64,000 bases of DNA from Planctomycetales bacterium (lineage in GTDB: Bacteria > Planctomycetota > Planctomycetia > Planctomycetales > Planctomycetaceae), in assembly GCA_026400835.1 (NCBI GenBank), contig JAPLOA010000083.1, forward strand, positions 1-64,000, in the 5' to 3' direction. A program made the position numbers and the translations under genes. Position 1 is the first letter of the stretch; each line of letters begins with the position of its first letter. Positions 6,474 to 58,523 of this stretch are shown one piece after another. The notes under the pieces are model-generated. The model did no database searches and was not told where the DNA came from. It saw only the letters and a program-made list of their open reading frames with translations.

Positions 6474-6670
6474 TTGTGTTGAATCGACTGTCGCGACGGG
6501 GTCTGTCACGAATAGCAGATTCGGTCGCGAGATGAACAAGACGGTGTTGGCGATGTCGAGCCTGTTTGGCCGTTGGTGGCCATGGAGGTCCGATCCGCCA
6601 TACCGTCTTTTTGTTTTTGTGGCGGGATGACTGCAGTATGTTCAGCTGTCCAATTTCGTCCAAACAGGAG

Positions 6671-6697
6671 TTGACAGTCACGGGCAACATTTATACT
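6671..6697 (+). promoter_or_regulatory. Putative sigma-70-type promoter for the XRE regulator
   Basis: A perfect TTGACA (6671-6676) is followed by TATACT (6692-6697) with a 15-base spacer, shorter than the ideal 17. Transcription would begin near 6704, which leaves a leader of about 58 bases before the GTG start chosen at 6762 and makes the ATG at 6708 unlikely. Confidence 0.4.
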
Positions 6698-6761
6698 GTG
6701 CGTCGACATGCGGCTCGCTGGTAACGCGAGCGTGTCTGAATCTGCCGAAGGAGCGACATCA

Positions 6762-7112: not shown

Positions 7113-7201
7113 CGATCGATGGAAATCACTGCACGGAGCCGGATTTTGAGGCTTCGTATCGAACTCAGGAAGAGCGACGAATCTCGCAGGGAGTGTGACT
7201 T

Positions 7202-7942: not shown

Positions 7943-7993
7943 TTGTATCTGTCTCGATCTGTCTCATTGGTGATGTGACTTAAAACAGATTCG

Positions 7994-8019
7994 GGCGAAG
8001 CGTTTGGCTTCGCCTTTTT
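7994..8019 (+). terminator. Rho-independent terminator
   Basis: A perfect 8-bp stem (GGCGAAGC / GCTTCGCC, 7994-8001 and 8007-8014) with a five-base loop is followed directly by TTTTT. It ends the XRE/ImmA transcript and separates it from csrA. Confidence 0.88.
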
Positions 8020-8032
8020 CTGAGCCACTGTG

Positions 8033-8060
8033 TTGACAGTTTCTGGCAACTTTGTGTTTT
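8033..8060 (+). promoter_or_regulatory. Possible csrA promoter
   Basis: A perfect TTGACA (8033-8038) lies just after the terminator and about 70 bases before the csrA start. No good -10 is visible at the expected spacing (the region is T/G-rich, tttgtgtttt), so this is only a weak call. Confidence 0.3.
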
Positions 8061-8106
8061 CGTGTTGGCCGATTGCCGACTTTTTTGCCTTGAATGGAGT
8101 CTTGAT

Positions 8107-8310
8107 ATGTTGGTTCTTTCTCGCAAACTGCAGCAGCAAATCGTCATCCCGGATTTGAATATTCGCATCACCGTGCTTTCCGTGGGAACAAACCGTGTGC
8201 AATTGGGTATCGAAGCGCCGAACTCAATTCAGATTACAAGACCGGAGATCAATGGTTTAACATCCGCGAATCGAGCGACGTCAGAGTGGCGTCAGGTTAT
8301 TGAGGTGTAG
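8107..8310 (+). CDS. csrA: Carbon storage regulator CsrA
   Basis: Typical 67-residue CsrA/RsmA translational regulator: it starts MLVLSRK and continues with the conserved core IVIPDLNIRITVLSV and VQLGIEAP. The homodimer binds GGA motifs in mRNA leaders to control translation and stability. The start is fixed by the invariant MLVLSRK and by GGAG about eight bases upstream; the longer in-frame reading from 8062 should be ignored. The gene is probably transcribed alone, between a terminator and a flavoenzyme gene that starts 18 bases later. Co-transcription with the latter is possible. Confidence 0.96.
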   Translation: MLVLSRKLQQQIVIPDLNIRITVLSVGTNRVQLGIEAPNSIQITRPEINGLTSANRATSEWRQVIEV

Positions 8311-8328
8311 TTTCAGTGGAGTGAACTT

Positions 8329-9477: not shown

Positions 9478-9993
9478 TGTGATTCTTGTTTTGCGTCTTG
9501 ATTGTACAGTATTGAATCGTAGCTTCAGGAATTGCTCTCGGGGCAGTAAATTCGGCTCGATGCAAAATCGAGTGCGCGCACCAGCACAGCAAGGCGACAC
9601 CGTAGTTTTCGGAGTCCGGGACGGATTGTTGCGATTCACCGCGAAGCGGTTTAAGAGGGTAGCCGGTGGTCAGCGTAGCGCAACCACCGGTTCGTGCTGT
9701 CATCCCTTCAGGATGAGTGTTCTTCCGACTAAGTCACCGGCGGTGCGCCGGTCGGCGACCGCCGGCTACTCTCCGGGATCCTTTCCGGATGAATCGCAGG
9801 GGGGCCCGCTTGCTACGCTTGCACACATGATTTCGCGTTGAACCGTAGTCAAATACTCGGTCTTGTTGGCCTCGCAAAATCAAGGGGGGCGTCGCGTTGC
9901 CAAATCGGCGATGCAAAGTCAGACTGCGTGACCAAGATCAGTCCGGAGATTCCTGCCGGCCATTGCCCTCCTCCTTAAAAGGACAACGAACAG
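9478..9993. other. Intergenic region with palindromic repeats
   Basis: This 516-base gap has no credible gene; its open frames are low-complexity translations of repeats. It holds the repeat block listed separately at 9650-9790. An AAAAGGA ribosome site for the downstream gene lies near 9977-9983. Confidence 0.5.
9650..9790. repeat. GC-rich intergenic palindrome cluster
   Basis: Three small hairpins lie side by side: ccggtggt (9663-9670) pairs with accaccgg (9683-9690); catcc/ggatg flanks a short loop near 9701-9715; and a block around 9735-9765 alternates ccgg, ggcggt and gaccgccggctac. The outer words gtagccggtggt and accgccggctac are imperfect inverted copies of each other. This looks like a degenerate dispersed intergenic repeat, not a regulatory RNA. 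Confidence 0.5.
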
Positions 9994-12900: not shown

Positions 12901-13014
12901 GATGTCGAGGAAACTCGCAATACTGGCAAATCTTTGATGCCGGACGGAATGCTGGATCCGCTGACTGAAGATCAGGTGAGAGATCTGTTCGGGTTTATGA
13001 TGCCGAAGAAGTGA
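9994..13014 (+). CDS. PVC-type haem-binding dehydrogenase-like protein
   Basis: Secreted 1006-residue paralogue of the protein at 321-3485. A signal peptide (about residues 1-36, ending near APSAAG) leads into a beta-propeller dehydrogenase domain starting at EVPEGFNVTLFAGEPDVQQP. This domain has DxDGDG calcium-type loops and the GGGHSHVGG and YVSDWSDNGECHDHDGVHR blocks. Helical repeats lie at about 480-860. The C-terminal cytochrome domain has CANCH (Cys887, Cys890, His891), IAPDLTGANR and the end motif of the PVC haem family. It probably oxidises an unknown sugar-like substrate in the periplasm. ATG 9994 is preceded by AAAAGGA. It is transcribed away from the sarcosine-oxidase-like gene and ends before a strong hairpin. 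Confidence 0.92.
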   Translation: MSVVCPRFVFGVHPACSALIILLTIGSFTVIAPSAAGEDDFPKAFNTDPPDSHPPTPDEMVKLIEVPEGFNVTLFAGEPDVQQPICMDFDDKGRLWVAECYSYSGGPYETKLRDRVTILEDTDGDGKHDSRKVFWDKGFMLTSLTWGFGGLWVLHDGTLSFIPDRDGDDVPDSEPVVMLDGWSKDCGHNFVSGLIWGPDGWLYGRHGIVDTSYPGVPGTPREERPFMNCGVWRYHPTKHTIEVVCNGTTNPWGLDYNPDGQFFMTNNVQGHLWHVIPGARYQRMYGQDFNPHAYELMDMTADHYHWDTKTKWNESRDGVANDLGGGHSHVGGLIYQGDNFPKEYFGKIFMCNTHGRRMNVNRLERQGSGYVGKREPDFMIVKNPWFRGIDIKMGPEGAIYVSDWSDNGECHDHDGVHRTSGRIYRIAYGTPKLTASQAAVLKGNNKLAFLNNDWINKGDWFGRHGRRIRQELVSGGELSGRALAPMTGYETVSQLLFTEAYGGNNKMQLEGALGSSDPLVLAQAIQLAASTPDRRTAHFEKLKKVAAKEQPANVLLAMVSVMQKFDENQRGGLMEAVIGCAANAQTIASENQLTLMTWYAIEPVVLRKGAVQLLESTPKLQMFAVRRLANDIDRDADNANTALLYVGKQVESKKNDRAAAMLTGFLTGLAGRAKVDAPKDWATIEKQLKASESKDVQVLGEAVGVLFGDGASMDGLRKLAGDSSADYVARDKAILALAQAKDAESIPMFFNLLGDRAVYSTVITALAGFDHPDTARQLLQRMGGFKDGNRGLAIDTMASRESYALELIGAIEGGRIDARELTAAQVRQMTAFGDDRIKSVLEEKWGVIHETPEARIVAIRKWQAVLTPETIAKADRDNGAAIFKKSCANCHKLYGEGKAIAPDLTGANRSNLEYLLMNIVDPSSVVPKQFTTSVVALKDGRVITGVVVSETEQTLVIQTDKEQLSISRGDVEETRNTGKSLMPDGMLDPLTEDQVRDLFGFMMPKK

Positions 13015-13027
13015 TTGTTCTCGGCGA

Positions 13028-13089
13028 GCGGCAGGGCGTCAGCCCTCCCACTCTCATGCGCAGTGCTCGGAGGGCTGACGCCCTGCCGC
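13028..13089. repeat. Perfect 21-bp inverted repeat (hairpin)
   Basis: Arms 13028-13048 and 13069-13089 are exact reverse complements (core ggcagggcgtcagccctcc) around a 20-base loop. No T-tract follows on either strand, so it is a poor intrinsic terminator. It sits between the haem-binding gene and rnr and resembles a REP-like intergenic element. Confidence 0.8.
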
Positions 13090-13142
13090 CCGGCAATTTG
13101 GTTTGGTGACGTTGTTCTGACAATGTTCATAAAGGTGAACCC

Positions 13143-15467
13143 ATGGGCAACTCACGCGACAATTCTTTGCTCGAAACACGCATCCTTGCGATCGTCAACG
13201 CCGTTGATTACGCACCGGTAACGACATCGATTCTGGCGAAATCGATGCAGGTCTCGAAACCGCAGTTTGCTGAATTCAAAGACGCACTGGCCACATTAAT
13301 CGAAGCGGGTCGCATTCGGCAGGATAAGAAAGGAAGGCTTCGTCCACGCGGCAGTGCCGGACTGGTTGCTGGTGTGCTGCGCAAGATCAGCAGCGGTGCC
13401 GCGTTCGTGATTCCGGCCCGGAAAGATCCCTCACAGAAAGATAACGATATCTATGTCGCCCCGCGCGATGTGAGAGATGCACAGACCGGAGACGATGTGC
13501 TGGTTCGTGTATCGGCCAAACGGCGTGCGAATGGCCAGCGATGTGGCATTGTCGAGAAGATCGTCGAACGGGCGACCAGCATTTTTGTCGGCACATACAT
13601 TGAATCCGGTGATCAGGGCTTCGTTCAGATCGACGGGACCGCATTCACGGCGCCGATTCACGTCGGCGACCCTGGTGCCAAAGGTGCGAAGCCGAACGAT
13701 AAAGTCGTGATTGAAATGCTGCGTTTCCCGACGGCCAGTCGGCCGGGAGAAGCGGTGCTGACCGAGGTGCTTGGCAAACGCGGTGATCCGGGCATCGACA
13801 CGAAGACGGTGGTTCACAGCCTTGGATTGCCGCACGAGTTTCCTGAAGACGCTCTTGCTGAAGCACGAAGGCAGGCGGAACTGTTCAAGGAGACGGATCT
13901 CTCGGGACGAGTCGATCTGACTGGTGAAACGATCATCACAATCGATCCCGCGACGGCTCGCGATTTTGACGATGCCATTTCGCTGACAAGATCGGACGAT
14001 GGCCATTGGCATCTGGGTGTGCATATTGCGGACGTGGCTCACTTCGTTCAGGCGGGCAGTCCTCTCGACAAAGAAGCACGCAAACGAGGGACCAGTGTCT
14101 ATCTGCCGCGGCATGTGATTCCGATGTTGCCGGAATTGATCAGCAACGGGCTGGCCAGCTTGCAGCAGGATCAGGTGCGTTACACAAAGTCGATGTTTAT
14201 CGAGTTTGATGCTGAAGGAAGCGTACTCGGAACCGAAGTTGCCAACTCGGCGATCAAGGTGGTGCGTCGCTTCGCGTACGAAGAAGTCATGCCCATCATT
14301 CAGAATCCGCGACAGCAGGTGGCCGATGTCACAGCCCCGGTACGAAAACTGCTGCACCTGATGTTTGAGTTGGCCATGTTGCTGCGTCGTCGACGATTTG
14401 CCAATGGTGCGCTCACAATGGGCATTCCGGAGGTCGAGATTGATTTCGACAAGGACGGCGGCGTCACCGGTGCGCATGAGCGTCATCATGATGAAAGTCA
14501 TGAGATCATCGAAGAGTTTATGCTGGCGGCCAATATTGCGGTCGCTCGCCTGCTGGAAAGCAAGCGGTTGCCGTTTCTGCGACGCGTGCATGGCGATCCG
14601 GATGAACTCAAAATGCGGAACTTCGAGCAGTTCTGCCTGGGCCTCGGGATTACTCTTCGCAAAGTTCAGAGTCGTGCAGAACTGCAGGAGATCATTCGTT
14701 CGGTTGAAGGAAAGCCGGAATCTCGTGCGGTCAACTTTGCGTTGCTCCGCAGTATGAAGCAGGCGGAATATGCTCCTGACGATATGGGCCATTATGCTCT
14801 TGCCGAAGAAGACTATTGCCACTTCACGAGTCCGATTCGACGTTATCCCGATCTGACAATTCACCGTCTGATTGGCCAGTTGGCAGCGAAGAGGCCCGCG
14901 AATGCTCAAACCATTGATGAGCTGCTGGAGTTGGGCAAGCATTGTTCCATCACAGAACGCCGTGCTGAGAAAGCGGAACGCGAGCTGATTAAGATCAAGC
15001 TGCTGCGATATATGTCCGGACACCTCGGCGAGGAGATGGATGCCTTCATCACGGGCGTTGAAAGCTTCGGCATGTTCTGTCAGGGAGTTGCTGTTCCCGC
15101 AGAAGGCATGGTTCATCTGAGCGCGCTGGGCGATGATTTCTATGTGTTTGATCAGCCGACCAGAACGCTGAAGGGGAGTCGCACAAAGCGGGAGTTTCGT
15201 CTGGGTGATCCCATCAGAGTTGTCGTTGCGGCCGTGGATATTGATCGCCGCATGCTGGACCTGCGTCCGGTGCTTGATGCGGCTGGATTAAAGCGACGAT
15301 CAGCTCCGCGGTCTCGTCCTGCTGGACCGCCTTCCCGTGAGTCAAAGGAACGACGCGCCGGTTCTGGAAGTTATCCGGAACCAGGACGCGGTCGTGGTGC
15401 TTCGAAGAATAAGCCGAAAGGGAAGGCCAAAGGCAAAACGAAGAAGGGCAAGAAAGGGCGGCGTTAG
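13143..15467 (+). CDS. rnr: Ribonuclease R
   Basis: A 774-residue 3'-to-5' exoribonuclease of the RNB family that degrades structured RNA and takes part in mRNA and rRNA turnover. Domain order: an N-terminal winged-helix region (residues 1-65), cold-shock OB domains (about 70-230), the RNB catalytic domain with ITIDPATARDFDDAISL (about 262-278, four acidic metal ligands) and HFTSPIRRYPDLTIHR, then an S1 domain (about 625-705). A very basic Lys/Gly/Arg tail follows (about 715-774, ending KGKTKKGKKGRR). Such tails assist RNA and ribosome binding. ATG 13143 has AAGGTG six bases upstream. Length and motifs are normal for the family. Confidence 0.97.
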   Translation: MGNSRDNSLLETRILAIVNAVDYAPVTTSILAKSMQVSKPQFAEFKDALATLIEAGRIRQDKKGRLRPRGSAGLVAGVLRKISSGAAFVIPARKDPSQKDNDIYVAPRDVRDAQTGDDVLVRVSAKRRANGQRCGIVEKIVERATSIFVGTYIESGDQGFVQIDGTAFTAPIHVGDPGAKGAKPNDKVVIEMLRFPTASRPGEAVLTEVLGKRGDPGIDTKTVVHSLGLPHEFPEDALAEARRQAELFKETDLSGRVDLTGETIITIDPATARDFDDAISLTRSDDGHWHLGVHIADVAHFVQAGSPLDKEARKRGTSVYLPRHVIPMLPELISNGLASLQQDQVRYTKSMFIEFDAEGSVLGTEVANSAIKVVRRFAYEEVMPIIQNPRQQVADVTAPVRKLLHLMFELAMLLRRRRFANGALTMGIPEVEIDFDKDGGVTGAHERHHDESHEIIEEFMLAANIAVARLLESKRLPFLRRVHGDPDELKMRNFEQFCLGLGITLRKVQSRAELQEIIRSVEGKPESRAVNFALLRSMKQAEYAPDDMGHYALAEEDYCHFTSPIRRYPDLTIHRLIGQLAAKRPANAQTIDELLELGKHCSITERRAEKAERELIKIKLLRYMSGHLGEEMDAFITGVESFGMFCQGVAVPAEGMVHLSALGDDFYVFDQPTRTLKGSRTKREFRLGDPIRVVVAAVDIDRRMLDLRPVLDAAGLKRRSAPRSRPAGPPSRESKERRAGSGSYPEPGRGRGASKNKPKGKAKGKTKKGKKGRR

Positions 15468-43618: not shown

Positions 43619-46600
43619 TTATTCGATCATGAGGCTGTTGAAGTCCATTTCATCAAAGTCACTGCTCGGCGCTTCCTGGTCTGGAGAGAGCCGAGGTTCT
43701 GTTGGTGCTTTGGGTTCAGGAGGTGCATCGAGCAGGCGATTGTGATCTGTGCGTCGTGATGACAATCGCACGGCCATCGCAGTCGGTTTTCCAACTTTCT
43801 TCGGTGCAGCTTCCGGAGCAACAGCCGCTGGCGTTGGTGCTACCGTCCCCGTCGGCTTCTGTGCTGGTGGTGTCGGTGCAACCGGCGGTACTGCTTTGGC
43901 GAAGATTGAATCGTCAAGCACAAAGTCCATATCATCGTCAGCGCTGGTTGCGGCTGGTGCTGAAGGAGTCACCGGTGGTTTTGATACTGGTGTTACTGCC
44001 GCAGGTGTTTGAGGTTTAGGACTTTGCGCCGGAACTTGCGCTGGCTTTTGAGGGACAGGCTTTGGTGTTTCTGCCACTGGTTTGGCTGGCGATTTTCCGG
44101 ACTGCTTCTGTTTCGCCGGTGTCTTTGCAGGTGGAGCCGCTGGCTTCTCTGTGACAACCGGTTTCTCCGCAACAACCGGCTCTTTAGGGGCGGCATGCTT
44201 TGGAGCTTCAGGTTCGGAAGTCAAAGGCTTTGCCGGAGGCTGAGCTTTCTCGGCTGCTGGTGCTGCCGGAGGTTGGGCCACCGGAGCCACAGCATTTGCA
44301 ACAGACTCCGTCACCGCGATCAGTTTAACTTTGGGGCTGGTCGGTTCCGAAGCATCAACATTTACTACGGGCACGGAGGCATCAGCAGACCTGACTTCTG
44401 ATGCTATCACGACAGATTCCGCTGGTGCAACAACATCATTCGTTGATGGAGCACTTGTTGCTTCGGCAACAACCTGGCTAATCGCCTCGACAGTTGCAGG
44501 AGACTCTGAAACGACCGCAGCAATCTGTGAGACACCAGCTTCTGGCGTCTGGGCTTTGGAGATAAGAAACTCGGCTGGGGCGGTCGTTACTTCGGCAGCA
44601 ACAGTCGGCAACACTTCGATCGCTGCTGGCTGGCTGATCAAAGGCTCGCCAACAGTGGGTTCCTGAATGGTGGTTTCGATCGCATCTCCAGCAGGCATTG
44701 CCTCAGCGACGGCTTCAGCGACCTCTGGTTCGAGGGCAGGAGTCGTGGCCGTCGGAGTCTGCTCAACAACCTGAGTCGGTGGAATGATCTCCTCTTCTGG
44801 CCCGGTCGGGACATTGGAGAGCCACTGCTGCGAGGGCCAACTGAATGGACGGAATCGATCGGCTGCTCCGGTCTGATCGCGATAGAGGATGGCTCGTCCC
44901 GGCGACAATGAGGCTGCGGCTGGCGTATCAATCAGGCTGGAAGAATCCGTCTGATTGAGTCGGAAGGCGATGCGGGAATCAAACTCACGCAACAGCGAAT
45001 TGGACAGCCAACGCATTGAATTGCTGAACGTGTCAGACCACACAATCACATGGATGCCGACCAGCGGACCCTTGCGAATCAGATCGCCCAGTTGTGAAGC
45101 TGGCGTGGCAGATTTGGTCGCTCCAAAACCGCCCATCCCGAAATCATCTTCATCGCGACGCAGGGAACGGAATTGTCCAATGTTACGAATCGCCAGGATG
45201 ATCGTCGGCGAGTTTGATCCATCTCCTGCGGCTTCGCGGGTCGCAAGTTCTGCTGATAATTCAGCAACAGTCGCATCGGCCTCGGCGGCTTTCCGCAGGG
45301 AGAAGCGAGGTGCGATTCCCTTGGTGAATGACGACGCGAATTTCAATTGCGAAGTCTGGTCCTGTCCATCGTGCAAAAGCACAAGTCGAGAAGCTTCCGA
45401 CACTCCACGTCCCGCAGGACCCGCAGAGATGCTGAGGATCGTCGACGCGAGGATAGAGTCCGCCAGATCGCCTTCCTGTCCAACGATCAGGACATTTTGT
45501 CCGCCTGATCTCTGGAAACGAATGCACATAGGTTCCGAGATCGCAACGGGGTCTCCGATCCATGCAGGAACGCCGTCCGCGCCCATGCGATTGGATACGG
45601 ACCGATTGGCGATCCAGGCATTCAGCGGTTCGCATTCTTCAATTGTCGGAGCAACATTGCCCTCAAACACAATCATGCGGCCCGGAGCCTTGTCCGCATA
45701 ATCCGGGCGCTGAGTCATCTCGTGAATCATAGATTCACGTTTCTCTTCATCCAGCCACGCGATCTGGAACGGATGATTGCCTTCGACCATTCCGTTCGCG
45801 TCGTTGTAAATGGCTTCGCCTGGTCGAGTCAGTTGGCGAGCGGCACCGTTTTCTTCGCTGAGAATCAGGTGTGCGTCGCTTTCGCTGCACTGCAGAGCGA
45901 TTCGAACGGCAACCTGTCCCAGCGTGCTGCGAGCCAGAGAATAGGCACCGCCGAGAGTTTGCGAACCAAGCAAAACGTGAATACCGAACGCACGACCCTG
46001 ACGGATCAGGCGGTCCATCAACAAGGCGGCTTTGGAAGAGACGCGGTCTTCAGAGGTAAAGAACTCCTGAAACTCGTCAATCAACAGCAGCAGGCGAGGC
46101 ATTTTCTCGTCAGGAAACTGTTTACGGAACGAAGGAACATCCTGCACGCCTCGCACGCGAAACAATTCACCGCGTTCCTGCAAAACTTCGTCCAGCCGTT
46201 CCAGAACGCTGAGTCCGAACTCGCGATCGCTTTCAATCGCCACGACTCGAGCATGCGGCAATTTGTTAGCGGCGTAGGTTCGAAACTCCACACCCTTCTT
46301 AAAGTCGATCAGATAAAACTGAACTTCATCAGGACTATAATGCAAGGAGAGATTCGTAATCAGAATGTGCAACAGCGTCGACTTGCCGGAACCCGTTTTG
46401 CCAGCGACCAGAACGTGCTGGCTGGTTCCTCGACCAAGACGCATAAACTGAAGTCGCGCCGCGCCAGCGCGGCCAATCGGGAAGTCGATTCCGTCTGCAG
46501 AGCGGGATGTCCAGATCGCATCTGACTTGGGAGCGATTCGGCTGAAGGAGACCTCGACTCTCCGAGCGTTGCGGGACTGCTCGCCAACGGCCCGCACCAG

Positions 46601-48847
46601 GCTGACGTATTCGGCAGACTCCGGAGGTACCAGAGCAGAGAACTCCAGAAAGTTGTCAGTCGATTCTGCGGCTGCCGGGGTAATTGGTTTGGCGTCCAGA
46701 ATATCCTGGCCGGGCAGAGTTTTTAACTTCTCCACTGGACGGCTGGCCGGTGACATGCCGGGCTGGACCAGACCTTTGGCCACGTGGAACTGAGTGCAGC
46801 AGTTTCTGAGATTACTCACATCGAACGAGCGTGGCGTTGTTTGGTCAGGCGACCAGGTGACGATCGCATGGACACCGCAACGAGGACCGCTCGTCAGAAT
46901 ACTGGTCAGCGCGCGAGCGGCTTCTTCCGTAAAGCTGTGCGGAAATCCGGCAACAACAACAAAATGATACGGTTCAGCAACTTCGCCGGCAGCCGCGTTG
47001 TATTGTTCGATCGTTTCGAATTCACTGCGAAGATACGTCTGAAAGACGCTCTCCATATGTTCGGTGATTTTCTGCAGTCGATCACGGATCTGAGTCGCGT
47101 CTGTCCAGATTCGATTGCTGATCAGCAGTTCATCGAAGTCCGCCAGATGCATCAAAGCGGAAAAGCTTTGGCCAAGCCCCACAGGATCAATCAGTGTGAA
47201 CTGAACTCGCCCGGGAGCGATATGAGTCAGGAGTCGCAACAGGATGGCACGGACGAATTCAAGAGCAGGTTCGCGACCGGCCGCGTCGTGTTCGACAAGG
47301 ATGGATGTGTCGCGAGGAAAATTCAACAGACCCGGAAGTTCGAAAACAGTATCGGCATCAATGCTGCCTTCGGCATCTTCCGGCGGGGCGGGCAGCATCA
47401 CTTCAAGATCACCGACCGGCAATGTCATCGGGAAGGCCGTCGGGGATGTCCAGCCGTTCGACTTCAAAGACTCCCATGAGAAAATGTCTTTTGCTCGTTC
47501 ATTGCTGATACGAGAAAGCTCTGACGCGACCATGACTCCGGCACGCCATCGAGCCAGTGCGTTGGCCTCATCGGTTGTCAGTTGAGCGCGGCGTGCCGCG
47601 GATTCCTTCTCAATCGCTTCACGTCCCTGAGCCAGTTCAGCGTCGTGCTGGCTGTGGATCCGAGCTAACTCCTGGGAACGCCAGTTTTCGACGGCGGTCT
47701 GGTGAAAGGAAGTCTCTGACTCTCCATTCAGCATCTGCTCATCAAACAGGCGAGACTGTCGAGCCACCTGTTCTGTATAGCCCTGGATTAACTCGTTTAC
47801 CTGGTCGTCAGTAGCGCTTTGCAATTTGGCCGCGTGTTTTTCACGACGCCCGACCATTTCGGCCTTCCATGTGTCAGCAGTGGTCATCAACTGCTGAATT
47901 TCCTGCTGGCTCTTTTGTGCCCAGTGGTTCGCGGCAGCAGTTGCATTGGAGGCATGCAGCAAAACGTCTTCGAATGCTCCTCGCAGACCAGATCGAGCCA
48001 GGAGCGTAAGCACAGTATTGATCAGAACGGCGGCCCCAAGACCAATGACTGCGGAAACTCCCAGCCATTCCCAGTCAGGCTTTGACAGCTCTGGGTTCAG
48101 AAACTTCGTCAGGTCAGCACGCAACGCAGTCGAAGCGATTGTGACTACAACAAAAATGAGAAGTCCCAGTCCGAAGAGTCTCCAGCCTGCGATCCACTGA
48201 GGCAGCATCTGACTATCGACTCGTCCTGCGGCTGCAAGCGCATAATCCAGTTGTTCGACAGCGATCTGGCGACTTGCATCTCGTCCCTTCAACTCCACCA
48301 CTGGCAATGGAAGTTGTTTGTCCATCCCGGCATGACAATCATCGAGATACCTGGCCGTATGATCAACTCGAGAAGTCAGATCGGCCAGTTGCTGATCGAT
48401 AAACGCTCTCTGAGTATTGAAAGATTCCTGAACGCGTTCTGCGTTTCGAACCGGAGTGTCTTCATTGGATTCATCACAGACGGACTGCAGAACCCAAAGT
48501 TCATTCTGGAGTTTCTGACGACACTCGGCAACATCCTGTTTAAGCTTTGCGTGCAGTGCTTCCAGACGCCGTTCACGAGCTTCGCTTGCGGACTCTCTCT
48601 GACCAGCAACGTCGACATCGGTCTGCTCCAGTCTGTTTCGAACTTCAACGGCCAGCAGCTCAATATGCTGCTTCGTTTCTGTTTCAAGACGTGACTGCAG
48701 GCGAGAGATGGCTTCGGAGGAGTGTGAGTCGAGTTCAAGAAGCTGAACTCGAATCTTCAGAACTGCCGCTCGAGCTTCGACGCAACGGATCTGGAGTTTC
48801 TTCAGTTCAGAGATTTGTGTTTCGAGAATCAGATCTTCCAAATTCAT
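43619..48847 (-). CDS. Giant coiled-coil, membrane-anchored FtsK/EccC-like triple-ATPase protein
   Basis: A 1742-residue protein. Residues 1-210 are mostly coiled coil (MNLEDLILETQISELKKL...). Two membrane helices follow (about 220-240, GLGLLIFVVVTIAS, and 262-285, AVIGLGAAVLINTVLTLLA), then a second helical region with many Gln/Glu/Arg. Three FtsK/SpoIIIE-type domains come next: the first (about 460-690) lacks a Walker A; the second (about 780-1040) is canonical, with GKTGSGKST (816-824) and LLLLIDEF (about 922); the third (about 1090-1330) has a degenerate loop, VGQEGDLADS. A Pro/Ala/Val-rich tail of about 370 residues ends with acidic MDF motifs. Triple ATPases of this kind drive type VII secretion (EccC). 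ATG 48847 replaces the longer frame from 48964. Confidence 0.85.
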   Translation of the reverse strand: MNLEDLILETQISELKKLQIRCVEARAAVLKIRVQLLELDSHSSEAISRLQSRLETETKQHIELLAVEVRNRLEQTDVDVAGQRESASEARERRLEALHAKLKQDVAECRQKLQNELWVLQSVCDESNEDTPVRNAERVQESFNTQRAFIDQQLADLTSRVDHTARYLDDCHAGMDKQLPLPVVELKGRDASRQIAVEQLDYALAAAGRVDSQMLPQWIAGWRLFGLGLLIFVVVTIASTALRADLTKFLNPELSKPDWEWLGVSAVIGLGAAVLINTVLTLLARSGLRGAFEDVLLHASNATAAANHWAQKSQQEIQQLMTTADTWKAEMVGRREKHAAKLQSATDDQVNELIQGYTEQVARQSRLFDEQMLNGESETSFHQTAVENWRSQELARIHSQHDAELAQGREAIEKESAARRAQLTTDEANALARWRAGVMVASELSRISNERAKDIFSWESLKSNGWTSPTAFPMTLPVGDLEVMLPAPPEDAEGSIDADTVFELPGLLNFPRDTSILVEHDAAGREPALEFVRAILLRLLTHIAPGRVQFTLIDPVGLGQSFSALMHLADFDELLISNRIWTDATQIRDRLQKITEHMESVFQTYLRSEFETIEQYNAAAGEVAEPYHFVVVAGFPHSFTEEAARALTSILTSGPRCGVHAIVTWSPDQTTPRSFDVSNLRNCCTQFHVAKGLVQPGMSPASRPVEKLKTLPGQDILDAKPITPAAAESTDNFLEFSALVPPESAEYVSLVRAVGEQSRNARRVEVSFSRIAPKSDAIWTSRSADGIDFPIGRAGAARLQFMRLGRGTSQHVLVAGKTGSGKSTLLHILITNLSLHYSPDEVQFYLIDFKKGVEFRTYAANKLPHARVVAIESDREFGLSVLERLDEVLQERGELFRVRGVQDVPSFRKQFPDEKMPRLLLLIDEFQEFFTSEDRVSSKAALLMDRLIRQGRAFGIHVLLGSQTLGGAYSLARSTLGQVAVRIALQCSESDAHLILSEENGAARQLTRPGEAIYNDANGMVEGNHPFQIAWLDEEKRESMIHEMTQRPDYADKAPGRMIVFEGNVAPTIEECEPLNAWIANRSVSNRMGADGVPAWIGDPVAISEPMCIRFQRSGGQNVLIVGQEGDLADSILASTILSISAGPAGRGVSEASRLVLLHDGQDQTSQLKFASSFTKGIAPRFSLRKAAEADATVAELSAELATREAAGDGSNSPTIILAIRNIGQFRSLRRDEDDFGMGGFGATKSATPASQLGDLIRKGPLVGIHVIVWSDTFSNSMRWLSNSLLREFDSRIAFRLNQTDSSSLIDTPAAASLSPGRAILYRDQTGAADRFRPFSWPSQQWLSNVPTGPEEEIIPPTQVVEQTPTATTPALEPEVAEAVAEAMPAGDAIETTIQEPTVGEPLISQPAAIEVLPTVAAEVTTAPAEFLISKAQTPEAGVSQIAAVVSESPATVEAISQVVAEATSAPSTNDVVAPAESVVIASEVRSADASVPVVNVDASEPTSPKVKLIAVTESVANAVAPVAQPPAAPAAEKAQPPAKPLTSEPEAPKHAAPKEPVVAEKPVVTEKPAAPPAKTPAKQKQSGKSPAKPVAETPKPVPQKPAQVPAQSPKPQTPAAVTPVSKPPVTPSAPAATSADDDMDFVLDDSIFAKAVPPVAPTPPAQKPTGTVAPTPAAVAPEAAPKKVGKPTAMAVRLSSRRTDHNRLLDAPPEPKAPTEPRLSPDQEAPSSDFDEMDFNSLMIE

Positions 48848-53417: not shown

Positions 53418-54575
53418 TCACCCCGCAGGAGCATCTCCGATGTCCTTGCTGAGAACCTGCAGGAAATTCGGTTCCGAATGAAGATCGACAAACTGCTGAT
53501 GCAAAGGCGATGGAGCCCATGTCTTAGCTTCCTTCGAAGATTCATCGATGGCAGTTGCAAGCTCGTGCTCATTACCGGAATCACAAACTGAACCCAGTTG
53601 GTAGCGTTTCGTCATTTCTCCGATCCAGCCGTAAGAATCACCGAGAACCGGTCTGTTTGCAGCGGCTGCCCTGATAACGGTACTTGAGGACCCGATGTGC
53701 CGCCGAAACGGAACGCACACAAAATCACACGCTTCAAAATATGTCGGTAGTTCTGAGTTATCAATAAACTTATCCAGAGCAACGATTCTGTTCGAGTCGG
53801 CCGTTTGCCCGTGGATTCGATTTCTAATCGTGGCTGAGAATTTCCCAGCCAGCAATAACTTCCATTGAGCTGATAAGCCGGCAGCGTTAAACGCATCAAT
53901 CAGTCGGTCTGCGCCCTTTCGCTCATCGATCGCACCAAAGAGCCCGATATAGCTGAATCCAGTCGGCAATTTCAGTGCATTCACAGCATCGAGACAGCTC
54001 AACATCTGCCCTTGAGGAACAGGGTCCGGCAGGAAGACACTTTTCCTGGCCAAAACATCGCAATGCTTCTTTACAAATTCGTATGCGATTGCATCAATCC
54101 AATAGACCCTGTGAATGACATTGGAGCTTAACGCCCGAAGAGTTATCAGATTCTGCAACCTTCTCCGAACGCCACTTTGCTCATATGCGAATGTGCCACG
54201 CATTTTCAGTACAGACACTCGTGCCCGGATTGAAGATCGCCTTAGCGACAGGGCTTCGAAAAGTGCCACGCACTCAGCAAGTCCTCCATCTGCGTAAGGA
54301 ATCAACACATCCGAATACGCCCCGCTTCGGATCTGGCTGCACAACCACGAGAGCACTCCAAACCTGCCCCTGCCATCAATGGTGACCTGTCTGACGTTGT
54401 CTGCAATTGCAGCCAGATGCCCATTAAACTCGGGGGTCTTGTTCACATCCGCCGGGAGCGCAAGCGTAACGTTGGCACCAGAAAACTGAGCGGCCATTGC
54501 GAATAGCCTGACATAGTTAAGCCTATGGCCTCCTGAGTTGGGCTCAAAGATTAAAATGTTCCTGTTGCTTCCCAC
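53418..54575 (-). CDS. Glycosyltransferase (GT4/GT-B-like)
   Basis: A 385-residue retaining-type glycosyltransferase with two Rossmann-like halves. The N-terminal GGHRLNYVRLFAMAAQF is the glycine-rich acceptor loop. The C-terminal half has YIGLFGAIDERKGADRLIDA and FDNSELPTYFEACDFVCVPF-like segments (IDNSELPTYFEACDFVCVPF), then SSSTVIRAAAANRPVLGDSY, the donor-binding part of GT4 enzymes. It probably adds a sugar to a surface polysaccharide. The start is GTG 54575: GGAGAGG lies seven bases before it and the protein begins MGSNRNILIFEPNSGGH. The ATG at 54626 would add an unrelated basic prefix. It is the last gene of the minus-strand polysaccharide cluster. Confidence 0.87.
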   Translation of the reverse strand: MGSNRNILIFEPNSGGHRLNYVRLFAMAAQFSGANVTLALPADVNKTPEFNGHLAAIADNVRQVTIDGRGRFGVLSWLCSQIRSGAYSDVLIPYADGGLAECVALFEALSLRRSSIRARVSVLKMRGTFAYEQSGVRRRLQNLITLRALSSNVIHRVYWIDAIAYEFVKKHCDVLARKSVFLPDPVPQGQMLSCLDAVNALKLPTGFSYIGLFGAIDERKGADRLIDAFNAAGLSAQWKLLLAGKFSATIRNRIHGQTADSNRIVALDKFIDNSELPTYFEACDFVCVPFRRHIGSSSTVIRAAAANRPVLGDSYGWIGEMTKRYQLGSVCDSGNEHELATAIDESSKEAKTWAPSPLHQQFVDLHSEPNFLQVLSKDIGDAPAG

Positions 54576-54961
54576 GCAGACACCTCTCCAATACCTGAGC
54601 CTCGCCGGACCGACCGCGGACGCCATCGTAGCCGTGGCAACCTTTGGATTTTCTGAACTGACCCGACCAGGACGTTATCTCCGAGAAACTGATCATAGCC
54701 TTCATTCTGAAACCGAAGCATCCGAGTTTCACGCCGATGTACCCAGGACGACAAACGCAATTCTTTAGATGAGCACCCTCGACACATCTGACGGAAAGAC
54801 GTCAACGGCGGAAATTCCTCTAATGCAACCTGAACTCATAACCAACTCCGGGGTTTATCGAGAACTGCTTACAGGGAAAGTGTCGCAGCGTCAATCGTCT
54901 TCAGTTGAAGTGGTTTAGGTTCATCACCAGGTGCTGAACTGCAATCATCGCTATTCAGCAT
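54576..54961. other. Intergenic stretch in the polysaccharide cluster
   Basis: This 386-base gap lies between the flippase and glycosyltransferase genes. A minus-strand frame (54551-54805) contains WVHRRETRMLRFQNEGYDQF, which looks slightly protein-like, but it overlaps the glycosyltransferase start and matches no family I know. It could be a decayed gene remnant; I leave it uncalled. Confidence 0.35.
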
Positions 54962-56308
54962 TCACGAAGTGTGAGTCACCAGTTTCTCTCGAACTCCGGA
55001 GTTAAGCAAAACGACAAAAGGAATGATGGTCAAGGCAAATGCGAGACCGGCCGCAGCGCAGAAGAAGTTGACCTCGAAGCCGTTGCAGGCCAGAAATGCG
55101 GCGACGGTAACAGTTCCAATTGATCTCGCAAACAGGAGCAATGAAACGACCCTCGTTTTGCCTAACGCAAGATTGACTGAATAAAGAAAGTTCTCAAGCG
55201 AGATTGCAGTTAAGTACACCATGGAGGCGGCCAACTGGTATTTCTCAGGGGGGGCTAACTTAGGAACAATTAACCGCAACACGGGATCGCCAAAGAAAAA
55301 TGCAGCTGTAGTAACGAACGCGCCAAACACCATCAAACTGAGAGTACCACCAAACATGTAGATTCGGACCCAACGGTGCGACCCCTCAGCCAGCGCATGA
55401 AAGAATGCAGCGCAAAGAGGCGAGATGATGATGCTCGCGACGGAGAACAGGCCCAGCACCAGGGACATCAATAAAGCAAAGCGAGAGATCTGATCAGCTT
55501 CACCAAACCTGGAAAGCAACAGTAGTGGCGCCTGGTTGCAAAGATAGGCCGATATTCCGCCAACGAAGGTAAAGACAAGAGTTTCGGAGCGGAGCGATGA
55601 ATACAGATCAGGATCAGCCTCGGTAGGCTTTACGCAGAGCGAGCTATTGTGAGCAAGAAACAAAAGCAAATTCAACACCTGCACGGTGAAGGGAACGGCA
55701 GCCACAATCGCAGCAACGACCAGATAGTTGGGCAGGCGTGGCAGGAGCGCGACGAGCAAGAGCATCGATATCAGTTTTGCAACAATCTCCCTGATGCTGG
55801 ATCGGTGCGATTCCAGCAGTGCTGACTGGAGCAGATCTGTCGTGCCAAGGGAAATCGAGAACAGTCCGCAAAATGCCAACAAGACGATTGGGGTTCTGTC
55901 GACGCTGTTTTCATTCACCCCCGGAATCAATCGTCCAAGACTCTCGTTGTAGATAACAATCAGAAAGACGAGAAAGAGAATCGTGGCCCACAGCGCTGAG
56001 GATCCGAGCGAAAAGCGAAGCAGAGAACGCTGGGAGTTAAGATCGCCCTTAACCACAGCCCGCGAAAAGACAGCGATCAGCGAAGGCCCGAACCTGATCA
56101 TGAAAACTGCAGGAAGAGCCGCGATCGCGGAAAGCGCCGCGAACTTACCGATACCACCACTCCCAAAAATAGAGACACAGGTTGCGGCCAACTGCAACTG
56201 GAAAACAACACTCAACGCGCGATGCAGGAACGCCGCAGCTATTGCAAGAAAAGTTCTCTTATTCCTCTGTGAACCGAAGTTCTTTCGCACGCCCCCCCCA
56301 TTCGTCAC
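54962..56308 (-). CDS. Polysaccharide/oligosaccharide flippase (Wzx-like)
   Basis: A 448-residue integral membrane protein with about 12 hydrophobic segments and short charged loops, the pattern of the MOP/PST (Wzx) flippase superfamily. The N-terminus has RTFLAIAAAFLHRALSVVFQ; middle segments include IVLLAFCGLFSISLGTTDLL and VFGAFVTTAAFFFGDPVLRL, the latter like the family's helix 9-10 region. It would move lipid-linked sugar units across the inner membrane for a surface glycan. The start is GTG 56308 (or GTG six codons on); no clear ribosome site. It lies between FkbM methyltransferase and glycosyltransferase genes. Confidence 0.82.
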   Translation of the reverse strand: MTNGGGVRKNFGSQRNKRTFLAIAAAFLHRALSVVFQLQLAATCVSIFGSGGIGKFAALSAIAALPAVFMIRFGPSLIAVFSRAVVKGDLNSQRSLLRFSLGSSALWATILFLVFLIVIYNESLGRLIPGVNENSVDRTPIVLLAFCGLFSISLGTTDLLQSALLESHRSSIREIVAKLISMLLLVALLPRLPNYLVVAAIVAAVPFTVQVLNLLLFLAHNSSLCVKPTEADPDLYSSLRSETLVFTFVGGISAYLCNQAPLLLLSRFGEADQISRFALLMSLVLGLFSVASIIISPLCAAFFHALAEGSHRWVRIYMFGGTLSLMVFGAFVTTAAFFFGDPVLRLIVPKLAPPEKYQLAASMVYLTAISLENFLYSVNLALGKTRVVSLLLFARSIGTVTVAAFLACNGFEVNFFCAAAGLAFALTIIPFVVLLNSGVREKLVTHTS

Positions 56309-56604
56309 CTCAATTGCATTGGAATCGGCCCCCGGAAAATCTGGTAAACGAGATTCACGATCACCAGCGTATCCGGGTCAATTGCTAAGTCTCTATCCTG
56401 AGCCGCATCATTGCCGTTCATCTCTGAATCGACGCAACTATGCCCCCTGCCTTACACGCATCGTCACCAACGATACATCAACATGCGCTACCGCAGGCGA
56501 AAAACTGGTGCCGCAATACAGCAGGCCATGGACATCGCTGAAATGCCGATACTGAAGTTACTCAAGCCTGATCATAGCTCTCCATCGGAAAACATGATCC
56601 TGCT

Positions 56605-57480
56605 CTACCGGTTTGGGACGGCCAGAATGTCTCCATAGGCTCGTGAGCCTGCCGGAGATGAGCTGTGGAAGGGGTCACATACTGAGTACCCCATCGCCTT
56701 CAACTCCGCGACGATGGATTCCGCTTTAAATCCTTTTGCTGCAAGAAGCTCTCGCGAGAACTCAGCAAACACAACTGGCCGGAACGACTTGAGTGTCTCC
56801 GTCGCACCTTTAAGCACAAGGCCTTCCGCGCCCTCGACATCAATCTTGATCAGGCCCGGATTTAGCCCATGCTCACGCACCAGTTGATCGATGGTTGAAA
56901 CATTGACTGGTATTCTTGTGCGATTTTGATCGTTCCTGACGGAGTAATGACTAATCCCACCCAGTGAAGAAAACTCTTCACGATCTTCAATAAACTCAAT
57001 GTCTAAAACGCCAGCCTTGTCGGCGAGGGCACCGTTAAAGACGATGACCTTCTGATTCAAGTTGTTACGCGCCACATTCGCGACCAGTCGCCTGTGTGCT
57101 CCTGGCGTTGGTTCGACAGATAACACTCGACCCGATTGAAGATAGGTCGCGAGCAGGCATGTGAAGAAGCCAATATTTGCCCCCACATCGATTGCATCTT
57201 TGTCCGGAGACACGTGCTCTCTCAGGATCTTGATGGCTTCCGGTTCGTACTCGCCAGTCTCGACTAATCTCGCGAAAAGATGCGACGCCACTGGTACTTG
57301 AAACACACCACCGAATGACGGCACGTTCAACACTGGATCATTCACGATCAATCGCTTCATGTTCACCCATTCATGTGATCTGAATGAGTTTTTGCGACCA
57401 AAAGTCTGCATCGCATAAATCCAGAGGGGGCGTAAACGACTCCCGAATCGCGATTGTTTAAGAGTCTCCAGCATCAGCAT
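56605..57480 (-). CDS. FkbM-family methyltransferase (1)
   Basis: A 291-residue SAM-dependent methyltransferase. The SAM motif is AIDVGANIGFFTCLLA (residues about 94-109). Motif II is VLSVEPTPGAHRRLVANVAR, and the core ends with LIKIDVEGAEGLVLKGATET, the hallmark of FkbM proteins. An N-terminal helix of about 40 residues, basic and aromatic, precedes the core. FkbM enzymes O-methylate sugars or polyketides; beside the flippase and glycosyltransferase it probably methylates the surface glycan. It starts at ATG 57480 (or 57474) and has a separate 338-base leader. Confidence 0.9.
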   Translation of the reverse strand: MLMLETLKQSRFGSRLRPLWIYAMQTFGRKNSFRSHEWVNMKRLIVNDPVLNVPSFGGVFQVPVASHLFARLVETGEYEPEAIKILREHVSPDKDAIDVGANIGFFTCLLATYLQSGRVLSVEPTPGAHRRLVANVARNNLNQKVIVFNGALADKAGVLDIEFIEDREEFSSLGGISHYSVRNDQNRTRIPVNVSTIDQLVREHGLNPGLIKIDVEGAEGLVLKGATETLKSFRPVVFAEFSRELLAAKGFKAESIVAELKAMGYSVCDPFHSSSPAGSRAYGDILAVPNR

Positions 57481-57818
57481 TCCTTTTCATACCCAAACGA
57501 ACAGCAATCTACGCGTCTGACCAGTAGCCGCCGTGTAGACTTCGCGTTTTACTTTGTCGCTTTGTGGATTGGATGCACGGGGCTGAGTCAACCGTATGCA
57601 GGTTCAATCACGACCACTTGGCGGTCTGGCTGAAGTTTATCAGCGGTAATGGCTATTGTCACCCGGAATTCATGGCTTGAGTTGCTTCGATCGTGACGAT
57701 GGCTGCGGATGTTTCGGGACAGTAATCAGCTTTCATGCGAGAAAAACAATGTCCGTCCGTTGTCCTTCAGAAATACCAGCAAGTTCAACAACACTCCGGT
57801 ATACAAATGGAACGGCAA
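57481..57818. other. Intergenic region between the two FkbM genes
   Basis: A 338-base gap, minus-strand context. Short open frames only; no hairpin with a T-tract, no clear promoter. The composition is slightly more AT-rich than the coding DNA around it. Confidence 0.4.
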
Positions 57819-58523
57819 CTACAGCAGATCACTTCTGACAAAGATGACGTCAGCCTGGTAAAGCTGGAAGCTTGGCTTGGCTGTATACCCATTGATAATC
57901 CAGATCGGCACGAATGATCTCGATCGAAGGTAGGCAATCAGATCTTCAATGAGAGATTCTCCCATGTATTGGGGGACAAGCGAAGCTTCAAGCTGAATCA
58001 GCTTGATCTCGCTGAGCCGAGTTCCGGCTCCCTCTAACACCTGCATCTCAAAGCCCTGAGTGTCAATTTTAAGACAAACGTTGTCGGAAGAGGCACACAA
58101 CTCGCTGTAGATGCTGTCCAGTCGAACGATGGTCACGGTCTCTTGCCCAACCGTCGTCAGATCGATCGCGTGTTCAATGGCTGAGAGTTTTCTGAATGAA
58201 CTGGCGGCCGAATGCGTGGATACGTTTATTGTGTCGGTGGCAGGAGCGGAGCCAAGGGCATAGTTATGCACCTTCCACTTTCCCGCACCATGCTGATTTG
58301 CCTTCAATCGCAGTTTCTCACTTGCGCTCCCAAGCGGCTCGAATGATTCGATTCTTCCTCTATAGCCGAGGGACCGTATGTGCATGGCATACTGCCCAAC
58401 GTTAGCCCCCACGTCCAATACACAGTCGATTTTAAAAGTGTCAAGATAATGCTTTAGAGGATATCGAATGAAGTCCCTGCCCTGCCGCTGCAGCGCATCC
58501 CGAATCAAGCTGAAGAGGAACAC
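57819..58523 (-). CDS. FkbM-family methyltransferase (2)
   Basis: A 234-residue SAM-dependent methyltransferase, shorter than its neighbour. The SAM motif is CVLDVGANVGQYAMHIRSLG (about 33-52), then RIESFEPLGSASEKL, and the FkbM end CLKIDTQGFEMQVLEGAGTR. A C-terminal region with FVPIWIINGYTAKPSFQLYQ follows. It probably modifies a glycan with the polysaccharide genes downstream. The start is GTG 58523, with only GGTGTCAG upstream and no clear ribosome site. Confidence 0.88.
   Translation of the reverse strand: MFLFSLIRDALQRQGRDFIRYPLKHYLDTFKIDCVLDVGANVGQYAMHIRSLGYRGRIESFEPLGSASEKLRLKANQHGAGKWKVHNYALGSAPATDTINVSTHSAASSFRKLSAIEHAIDLTTVGQETVTIVRLDSIYSELCASSDNVCLKIDTQGFEMQVLEGAGTRLSEIKLIQLEASLVPQYMGESLIEDLIAYLRSRSFVPIWIINGYTAKPSFQLYQADVIFVRSDLL

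What the first reader, a model, noticed from the sequence alone, without database searches (positions are those of the whole stretch)
43619..48847. EccC-like triple ATPase with an unusual design
The sequence shows an N-terminal coiled coil, two membrane helices and three FtsK-like domains in a row, with the only complete Walker A (GKTGSGKST, residues 816-824) in the middle domain. Type VII secretion EccC proteins also have three tandem FtsK-like domains, but their first domain is the better conserved one and they have no long N-terminal coiled coil. No WXG100, EccB, EccD or EccE gene is near. This could be the motor of an undescribed planctomycete secretion or envelope-transport system, possibly with the lipoprotein downstream. 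The link to secretion is inference.
Basis: partly seen in the sequence, partly recalled or inferred. Interest (0 to 1): 0.75.

Follow-up and report, generated by a model that had tools for sequence, protein, structure and literature searches.

The report
Planctomycete type VII-like secretion motor
The gene encodes the membrane-anchored ATPase of what looks like a small, four-protein relative of type VII protein secretion found in most sampled planctomycetes of its class; in this organism its three partner genes lie elsewhere in the genome, which is why they were not seen next to it.

Summary
The gene is real: 1742 codons, minus strand (43619-48847), two membrane helices and three FtsK/RecA-like domains. 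Only the middle domain has a P-loop and a DE Walker B (20 of 20 aligned sequences). It is not segregation FtsK, which is a separate gene here; the closest solved relatives are type VII EccC/EssC/YukB. In 13 of 18 ATPase copies outside the window's genus, three small genes sit close upstream on the same strand: a WXG100 protein (WRD motif, nearest to H. pylori HP0062), a ~200-aa helical protein and a ~75-aa protein with a W-x-D motif. The window genome has all three, on two other contigs. Six of 40 genomes lack all four genes. The lipoprotein is a neighbour only in the two closest relatives. On a Helicobacter plasmid a WHH-nuclease protein beside a SUKH immunity gene takes the ~200-aa slot. The cassette type is in print (Zhang 2012 footnote; H. 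pylori pan-genome 2016; CoCoNuTs 2024). The planctomycete form looks like a membrane-anchored variant without a recognised nuclease. Protein export is the best explanation but has not been shown.

The parts
43619..48847 (-). ATPase gene, 1742 aa: EccC/EssC-like motor of a WXG100-linked cassette
48203..48847 (-). N-terminal region, residues 1-215, Pro/Gly-poor and charged (coiled coil likely, not demonstrated)
48122..48178 (-). membrane helix 1, residues 224-242
   Evidence: hydropathy 2.46
47996..48052 (-). membrane helix 2, residues 266-284
   Evidence: hydropathy 2.22
46523..47530 (-). residues 440-775, including the first FtsK-like domain, which has no P-loop; probably matches the EccC DUF/NBD0
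   Evidence: FtsK_SpoIIIE 37.7 bits at 46838-47257; no P-loop; FtsK-motor fold Z 16.4, rmsd 3.2, 218 aligned, on a low-confidence model; A5 profile found no PDB chain at E<=1
45743..46522 (-). residues 776-1035, active ATPase domain, probably EccC NBD1
46376..46402 (-). Walker A GKTGSGKST, residues 816-824
46073..46093 (-). Walker B region ending in D924-E925
   Evidence: D924 and E925 invariant
44813..45700 (-). residues 1050-1345, degenerate third domain, probably EccC NBD2
   Evidence: E 0.0015 to EccC5; RecA-like fold Z 10.7, rmsd 3.7, 156 aligned, low-confidence model
43643..44812 (-). Pro/Ala/Thr-rich tail of about 390 residues, long only in the window lineage among the 20 aligned rows
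43622..43660 (-). extreme C-terminal peptide, pattern shared within the family
   Evidence: 16 of 17 family f1 + Fuerstiella sequences, 0 of 20 others (pattern defined after the fact)

Best explanation
This is the motor ATPase of a minimal, membrane-anchored type VII-like export system of four proteins: a WXG100 protein, a ~200-aa helical partner, a ~75-aa protein with a W-x-D motif, and this ATPase. Shown by sequence: the ATPase has two membrane helices and FtsK-like domains with one live site. The partners lie next to it in most copies outside the genus, and all are present, unlinked, in the window genome. Six of 40 genomes lack the ATPase and all three partner families. Inferred: the ATPase forms a ring at the inner membrane through its two helices and helical stalks. 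The WXG100 protein pairs with itself or with the ~75-aa protein and escorts the ~200-aa protein to a degenerate ATPase domain. That docking activates the middle domain, and the folded helical complex is pushed across the inner membrane through a gap gated by the ATPase's own helices, as proposed for EccC. The exit across the outer membrane is unknown. On a Helicobacter plasmid the ~200-aa slot holds a nuclease protein beside a SUKH immunity gene. The planctomycete form would be a version without a recognised toxin domain, kept as a chromosomal function.
For: ATPase kinship: best PDB match 4nh0 EccC (E 5.9e-32 single sequence; 2.9e-42 profile), then EccC5 and YukB; FtsK is weaker (1e-12). Partners, in 40 genomes (the window's own and 39 relatives): WXG100 profile in 31, ~200-aa family in 33, ~75-aa family in 34, ATPase in 33 (read from the rows after setting FtsK paralogues aside and counting the 241-aa fragment of G016). 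G018, G019, G024, G028, G033 and G037 lack all four; a further FtsK-like match of G018 was checked and is a 656-aa FtsK-type protein. Fisher p 2e-6 for ATPase against the ~200-aa family, leaving out the 61%-complete G017 and not corrected for kinship. Linkage: 13 of 18 copies outside the genus have all three within about 5 kb on the same strand; 5 of 6 genomes from outside the class have the same order. All 17 WXG rows match Pfam WXG100 at E<=0.1, best 1e-12; 15 of 40 genomes have a hit over its cut-off, against 1 of 14 control genomes. Nearest solved structures are HP0062 3fx7 (E 2.9e-9), then EsxB; EsxA follows. Window genome partners: G000:C71:12148-12417 and 12550-13155, and G000:C52:79456-79671.
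Against: No secretion data. The YxxxD/E export signal is absent from 17 of 17 WXG proteins. No LXG match in any of 40 genomes (B. subtilis control positive), and YukD in only 4 of 40, none in the window genome. The first domain's profile finds no PDB chain at E<=1. The ATPase model is poor (mean pLDDT 46.6). Five of the 20 aligned rows show only one hydrophobic segment at the threshold used. Plasmid homologues show no or one weak segment, and the CoCoNuT authors infer a different mechanism for their TM-less forms. The tie between the ~200-aa family and the plasmid proteins in the same slot is weak: A2 profile E 1.3e-5 and 2.1e-5 in a 40-protein set, but 7.7e-5 also for a WXG-like protein, and 4.9 (no match) for the Helicobacter nuclease protein. 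The Caballeronia slot protein has no Pfam match. The ~75-aa family is not significantly WXG100 by profile comparison (hhalign probability 8%). Three genomes with the ATPase lack a WXG hit (G002, G007, G025).
Confidence: 0.66

Rival explanations
1. It is not an exporter but an intracellular stress or defence machine. The ATPase ring handles the coiled-coil and WXG proteins inside the cell, as may hold for the TM-less CoCoNuT/TerY-linked relatives, and the membrane helices only tether it.
For: The Caballeronia plasmid copy sits among VWA, CARF, PP2C and kinase genes. Plasmid copies have no or one weak hydrophobic segment. The CoCoNuT paper proposes a different mechanism for TM-less forms. PADLOC SspH and Mad8 models match the middle FtsK domain.
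Against: 15 of 20 aligned planctomycete rows have two or more hydrophobic segments in the same region, and in the 20 neighbourhoods clustered only the three small families recur widely beside the ATPase (clustering by BLAST, no domain search of all neighbours). The PADLOC matches cover only the shared FtsK domain. The nuclease plus SUKH pair of the Helicobacter plasmid is typical of export to rivals.
Confidence: 0.2
2. It is a DNA translocase: an FtsK paralogue, or a coupling protein of conjugation.
For: FtsK motor structures rank among the best fold matches, and TcpA is also matched; Pfam FtsK_SpoIIIE.
Against: EccC/EssC/YukB score far above FtsK by sequence. No gamma-domain family among the Pfam hits. 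The genome has a separate FtsK. The ATPase occurs with WXG100 genes.
Confidence: 0.05
3. It works with its window neighbours, such as the 790-aa lipoprotein, as an envelope transport unit separate from the WXG100 genes.
For: The lipoprotein lies downstream on the same strand and is adjacent in L004 and L005.
Against: Those two are the closest relatives (96% and 90% identity over the ATPase). The other 12 of 14 loci compared show no homologue of the lipoprotein, SDR or metallo-beta-lactamase at E<=1e-15 in the stretches fetched. The cassette genes share the ATPase's presence and absence.
Confidence: 0.04

Closest known systems
CoCoNuT-linked WXG100/EssC-like ATPase operon (PMC11090510; passages read)
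   Different: Those lack membrane helices, their coiled-coil protein carries a REase-like nuclease followed by a DNA mimic, and they sit between VWA genes in defence loci. The planctomycete form has two membrane helices and no recognised nuclease. The authors number the central domain D2; by profile it fits NBD1 best here.
HP0062/HP0066 'minimal type VII' pair of H. pylori (PMC4978471 and PMC3397514; passages read)
   Same: WXG100 protein with WRD in the bend, clustered with a FtsK/SpoIIIE protein. HP0062 is the nearest solved relative of the planctomycete WXG protein. The 2016 paper also lists FtsK/SpoIIIE together with a HNH/ENDO VII nuclease in one gene cluster.
   Different: The passages read describe neither a planctomycete form nor the membrane-anchored architecture. 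HP0066 itself was not aligned here.
[quoted passage not shown] passages read)
   Same: Exact description of the ATPase, and planctomycetes are named.
   Different: A footnote, called mobile, no partner genes beyond WXG. Here two more families, occurrence in most sampled genomes of the class, and an ATPase tree in which two families form clades.
EccC/EssC of T7SSa, T7SSb and T7SSc-j (PMC11217815, PMC8131196; passages read)
   Same: Membrane ATPase with two helices and a first NBD (DUF) before NBD1, plus WXG100.
   Different: Four NBDs and further membrane subunits there; three domains and no YukD/EsaB match in the window genome here. Equivalog cut-offs missed by far.

Membership tests
WXG100/FtsK-like ATPase cassette (CoCoNuT/TerY-P/HP0062-HP0066 type) | three FtsK-like domains, only the central one catalytic | tested here: met
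   P-loop and DE Walker B in the middle domain, no other P-loop, 20 of 20 rows; the third domain rests on a weak profile match and a low-confidence fold
WXG100/FtsK-like ATPase cassette (CoCoNuT/TerY-P/HP0062-HP0066 type) | WXG100 protein encoded with the ATPase | tested here: met
   13 of 18 copies outside the genus within about 5 kb, 0 of 16 inside it; present unlinked in the window genome
WXG100/FtsK-like ATPase cassette (CoCoNuT/TerY-P/HP0062-HP0066 type) | second, motif-poor WXG100-type protein | tested here: inconclusive
   ~75-aa family with invariant W24, W31 and D33 in 17 rows, but hhalign to the WXG profile has probability 8%
[quoted passage not shown]
   long Pro/Gly-poor region, no significant heptad signal; no dedicated predictor at hand
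WXG100/FtsK-like ATPase cassette (CoCoNuT/TerY-P/HP0062-HP0066 type) | coiled-coil protein fused to a nuclease (CoCoNuT form) | tested here: not met
   ~200-aa family, 18 members scanned: weak Exonuc_VII_L matches in 6 (best 8.4e-4), read here as the long helical part, and no REase or HNH family among the 19 families listed; the one member modelled is helices plus a loose tail
WXG100/FtsK-like ATPase cassette (CoCoNuT/TerY-P/HP0062-HP0066 type) | no membrane helices (CoCoNuT form) | tested here: not met
   residues 224-242 and 266-284 in the window protein
T7SS as defined in Bacillota/Actinomycetota (T7SSa-j) | EccC/EssC equivalog | tested here: not met
   113.8 bits against cut-off 778.4 (EssC), 107.9 against 346.55 (EccCb), 98.6 against 509.15 (EccCa)
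T7SS as defined in Bacillota/Actinomycetota (T7SSa-j) | four NBDs | tested here: not met
   three domains up to residue 1345, then a low-complexity tail
T7SS as defined in Bacillota/Actinomycetota (T7SSa-j) | EsaB/YukD protein | tested here: not met
   none at E<=0.01 in the window genome; 4 of 40 genomes, all in family f2; B. subtilis control positive
T7SS as defined in Bacillota/Actinomycetota (T7SSa-j) | EccB | tested here: inconclusive
   0 of 40, but no control genome rang
T7SS as defined in Bacillota/Actinomycetota (T7SSa-j) | EccD, EccE, EssA, EssB, EsaA | not tested
T7SS as defined in Bacillota/Actinomycetota (T7SSa-j) | YxxxD/E export signal on the WXG protein (motif recalled) | tested here: not met
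   0 of 17
T7SS as defined in Bacillota/Actinomycetota (T7SSa-j) | LXG effectors (T7SSb) | tested here: not met
   0 of 40; B. subtilis control positive
T7SS as defined in Bacillota/Actinomycetota (T7SSa-j) | protein export | not testable with these tools
   needs cells
FtsK/SpoIIIE DNA translocase | gamma domain and role as the genome's FtsK | tested here: not met
   no gamma-domain family among the Pfam hits at E<=1; separate FtsK at G000:C50 with 221.8 bits

The most novel reading that the evidence does not exclude
Planctomycetes of this class carry a widespread diderm export machine reduced to a single membrane protein, this ATPase, plus three small helical proteins. It derives from, or is ancestral to, the mobile toxin-bearing WXG100/FtsK cassettes, and it has become a toxin-free cellular function whose genes can disperse across the genome without being lost.
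Probability: 0.42. Interest if true: 0.7.

Novelty: new variant of a known kind. Interest (0 to 1): 0.5.

Why it matters
The 2024 survey of type VII systems read here (passages) covers Actinomycetota and Bacillota and does not mention planctomycetes. A four-gene version in a diderm phylum, with one identified membrane protein, would allow a test of whether an EccC-type ATPase and WXG100 proteins alone suffice for export. It also shows that judging such a gene by its neighbours can fail where a cassette has dispersed: in this genus the partners are found by whole-genome search only.

Tried and rejected
Led nowhere: NCBIfam and PADLOC give sub-cut-off or shared-domain matches. The A7 profile scan of viral contigs found no relative. 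The first-domain profile against PDB found nothing at E<=1. The ATPase model is too poor for domain packing (pLDDT 46.6). Foldseek put EccC/EssC in its first 8 rows, but with rmsd 15.5-38.0, so only single-domain rows are used, and with caution; EccC/EssC fragments align to several domain pairs, so it does not fix the domain numbering. The single-sequence model of the ~200-aa protein (L008; pLDDT 64.1) is five helices and a loose tail, with no PDB match at E<=0.001. The ~75-aa profile found designed, coiled-coil and other unrelated chains, best E 0.0082. The ~200-aa profile found unrelated helical chains, best E 0.00053, and an ESAT-6-like chain at 0.093. Heptad periodicity was not significant. 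The WXG100 family search at E<=1 rings in 40 of 40 genomes and 13 of 14 controls, so only hits over the cut-off or with the A1 profile are used.

Considered and rejected: the lipoprotein as partner; segregation FtsK; the 'mobile' label for the planctomycete form. The ATPase tree groups family f1 (with Fuerstiella; 100/99) and f3 (100/100), but f2 and f4 are not resolved as clades and 9 of 25 inner branches are open, so mainly vertical descent is a reading, not a proof.

Rows dropped or uncertain: the G016 ATPase fragment is counted among the 33 but left out of the synteny table (34 copies). G017 (61% complete) was left out of the Fisher test. G025's ATPase lies on a 6.6-kb contig and its ~200-aa and ~75-aa genes at the end of another, so its 'unlinked' status may be an assembly break. 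Several genus contigs are short (G010 4.3 kb, G007 4.8 kb), so 0 of 16 overstates unlinking for those. In G014, G001, G011 and G012 the WXG and ~200-aa genes are on different contigs, but G014's ~200-aa gene lies about 220 bases from its contig end, so breaks are not excluded. Firm cases are the window genome (contigs of 85, 65 and 370 kb), G021 (one contig) and G023. G094's first ATPase copy starts at a contig edge; its second copy and G103 have no adjacent partner hit.

Literature: ten searches (the lists of 44, 102, 103 and 122 were capped) showed no paper describing this four-gene set in planctomycetes; PMC3482391 names the ATPase type in a footnote. Papers were read as passages only. Anantharaman 2012 was seen only as cited by others.

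Full report
What is there. The frame 43619-48847 (minus strand, ATG start, 1742 aa) is real and has orthologues in most relatives searched. It has two membrane helices at residues 224-242 and 266-284 and a single P-loop at 816. Pfam FtsK_SpoIIIE matches the middle domain (93.1 bits) and, above its cut-off, the first domain (37.7 bits at 46838-47257). The third domain is degenerate: a weak match to EccC5 NBD2 and a RecA-like fold in a poor model. In an alignment of 20 sequences, the only P-loop and the DE Walker B are in the middle domain. The N-terminal 215 residues are Pro/Gly-poor, but a coiled coil was not demonstrated. Two or more hydrophobic segments are seen in 15 of the 20 rows, one in the other five.

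Kinship of the ATPase. The nearest solved chains are type VII ATPases: T. curvata EccC 4nh0 (E 5.9e-32 with the single protein; 2.9e-42 with the 20-row profile), EccC5 and YukB. FtsK is far weaker. The middle domain scores higher with EccC NBD1 than with NBD2 (81.3 against 39.1 bits in EccC5, 72.7 against 56.5 in 4nh0), the YukB alignment runs on upstream into the region before its NBD1, and the third domain's weak match is to NBD2. I therefore read the order as NBD0-NBD1-NBD2, which is EccC without its last domain; ESX-5 EccC has two helices and four NBDs, the first called DUF. The CoCoNuT authors number the central domain D2, so the numbering is open. Equivalog cut-offs of NCBIfam are missed by far. 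A separate true FtsK is in the genome.

The missing partners. A WXG100 search of 40 genomes (the window's own and 39 relatives) placed hits about 2 kb upstream of the ATPase in many of them. Clustering of neighbours gave a fixed order: WXG100 (~90 aa), a ~200-aa helical protein, a ~75-aa protein, then the ATPase, with gaps of -74 to 254 bases in the six loci measured. Profile searches of the same 40 genomes found the WXG protein in 31, the ~200-aa family in 33, the ~75-aa family in 34 and the ATPase in 33 (FtsK paralogues set aside, a fragment in G016 counted). G018, G019, G024, G028, G033 and G037, from three families, lack all four; a further FtsK-like match in G018 was checked and is a 656-aa FtsK-type protein. 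The other gaps are G017 (ATPase; 61% complete), G002, G007 and G025 (WXG) and G007 (~200-aa). Fisher p for ATPase against the ~200-aa family is 2e-6, uncorrected for kinship.

Linkage and dispersal. Outside the window's genus, 13 of 18 ATPase copies have all three partners within about 5 kb on the same strand, two more have two, one has one, and two have none. Inside the genus 0 of 16 do, though some of those contigs are short. In the window genome the WXG100 and ~200-aa genes lie together at G000:C71:12148-13155 and the ~75-aa gene at G000:C52:79456-79671, on contigs of 65 and 370 kb, while the ATPase is on an 85.4-kb contig. G021, a one-contig genome, has the WXG gene near 2.50 Mb, the other two small genes near 4.30 Mb and the ATPase near 5.92 Mb. 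G023 keeps WXG with the ~200-aa gene and the ~75-aa gene with the ATPase on two contigs. On the ATPase tree the window lineage is sister to Fuerstiella (L008) and G022, whose cassettes are intact. The break points differ, so the cassette seems to have broken up more than once while its genes stayed. In a sample of the phylum the ATPase is in 6 of 73 genomes outside the class, and 5 of those 6 have the same four-gene order.

The small proteins. The WXG protein has W43-R44-D45 invariant in 17 rows. All 17 match Pfam WXG100 at E<=0.1, best 1e-12. The nearest solved structures are H. pylori HP0062 (E 2.9e-9), then EsxB, and further down EsxA. None of the 17 has a YxxxD/E signal. The ~75-aa family has invariant W24, W31 and D33, but its link to WXG100 is only suggestive (hhalign probability 8%). 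The ~200-aa family has no informative Pfam match, and one member is modelled as a helical bundle with a loose tail.

Relatives elsewhere. On plasmids the ATPase type is rare: five records matched the Caballeronia and Helicobacter proteins at E<=1e-20. A Helicobacter plasmid has, in order, a WXG protein, a 340-aa protein ending in a WHH nuclease domain (E 1.1e-11), a SUKH-type immunity gene, a 77-aa gene and the ATPase. A Caballeronia plasmid has VWA, WXG100, a 436-aa protein without Pfam match, 113-aa and 76-aa genes, the ATPase, then CARF, VWA, PP2C and kinase genes. The WXG profile finds these WXG genes (E 1.1e-15 and 2.4e-25), whereas the ~200-aa profile reaches only 1.3e-5 on the Caballeronia protein, scores a WXG-like protein at 7.7e-5 and does not find the Helicobacter one. 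So the shared slot rests on position and weak similarity. These copies show no or one weak hydrophobic segment.

How it most likely works. Shown: gene content, co-occurrence, membrane helices and one live ATPase site. Inferred by analogy with EccC: a ring of ATPases whose helices gate the membrane, docking of a WXG-led helical complex on a degenerate ATPase domain, activation of the middle domain, and export of the folded complex across the inner membrane. Unknown: the outer-membrane step, the substrate and the function. A rival is an intracellular role, as suggested for TM-less relatives in defence islands.

What is known. The ATPase type is named for planctomycetes in a footnote of PMC3482391, as part of mobile T7SS versions. 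PMC4978471 calls WxG plus FtsK a minimal set of T7SS in H. pylori. PMC11090510 describes the same cassette type beside CoCoNuTs. What I did not find in print (ten searches, four with capped lists) is the planctomycete form: membrane-anchored, four genes, no nuclease recognised, in most sampled genomes of the class and dispersed in some genera. Hence a new variant of a known kind, interest 0.5.

Noticed in passing
window 43622-43660 and C-termini of relatives: A short acidic-hydrophobic peptide ends the ATPase in 16 of 17 sequences of family f1 plus Fuerstiella and in 0 of 20 others, after a tail of very variable length (pattern defined after seeing the sequences). It may be a docking motif.
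   Followed up: partly
G025:C256:2175, G030:C2:1926845, G034:C134:4208, G038:C1:3341505: YukD (EsaB-like ubiquitin fold) genes over the Pfam cut-off in 4 of 40 genomes, all in family f2. In G030 and G038 they lie on the ATPase contig but more than 250 kb away; in G025 and G034 on other contigs.
   Followed up: no
G034:C121:227209 and G038:C1:2286145: A second copy of the ATPase with its ~200-aa and ~75-aa partners but no adjacent WXG100 gene.
   Followed up: no
L091 (Rhodococcus plasmid) 6492-11922: ATPase, 314-aa, 73-aa and WXG-like genes, with the ATPase first rather than last, followed by TerD genes.
   Followed up: partly
L143, record MT836827.1: A human gut scaffold labelled bacteriophage carries an ATPase of this type (1423 aa, E 1.3e-127 to the profile) beside a ThiF/E1-like frame (recognised by eye, no search); it may be bacterial.
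   Followed up: no
L005, CAMAXD010000030.1: A contig titled Candidatus Kuenenia stuttgartiensis whose ATPase core is 97% identical to the window's and groups with it in the tree; the organism label looks wrong.
   Followed up: no
window 53418-58523: Two FkbM-type methyltransferases and a glycosyltransferase near each other, with a 448-aa frame without Pfam match between them.
   Followed up: no
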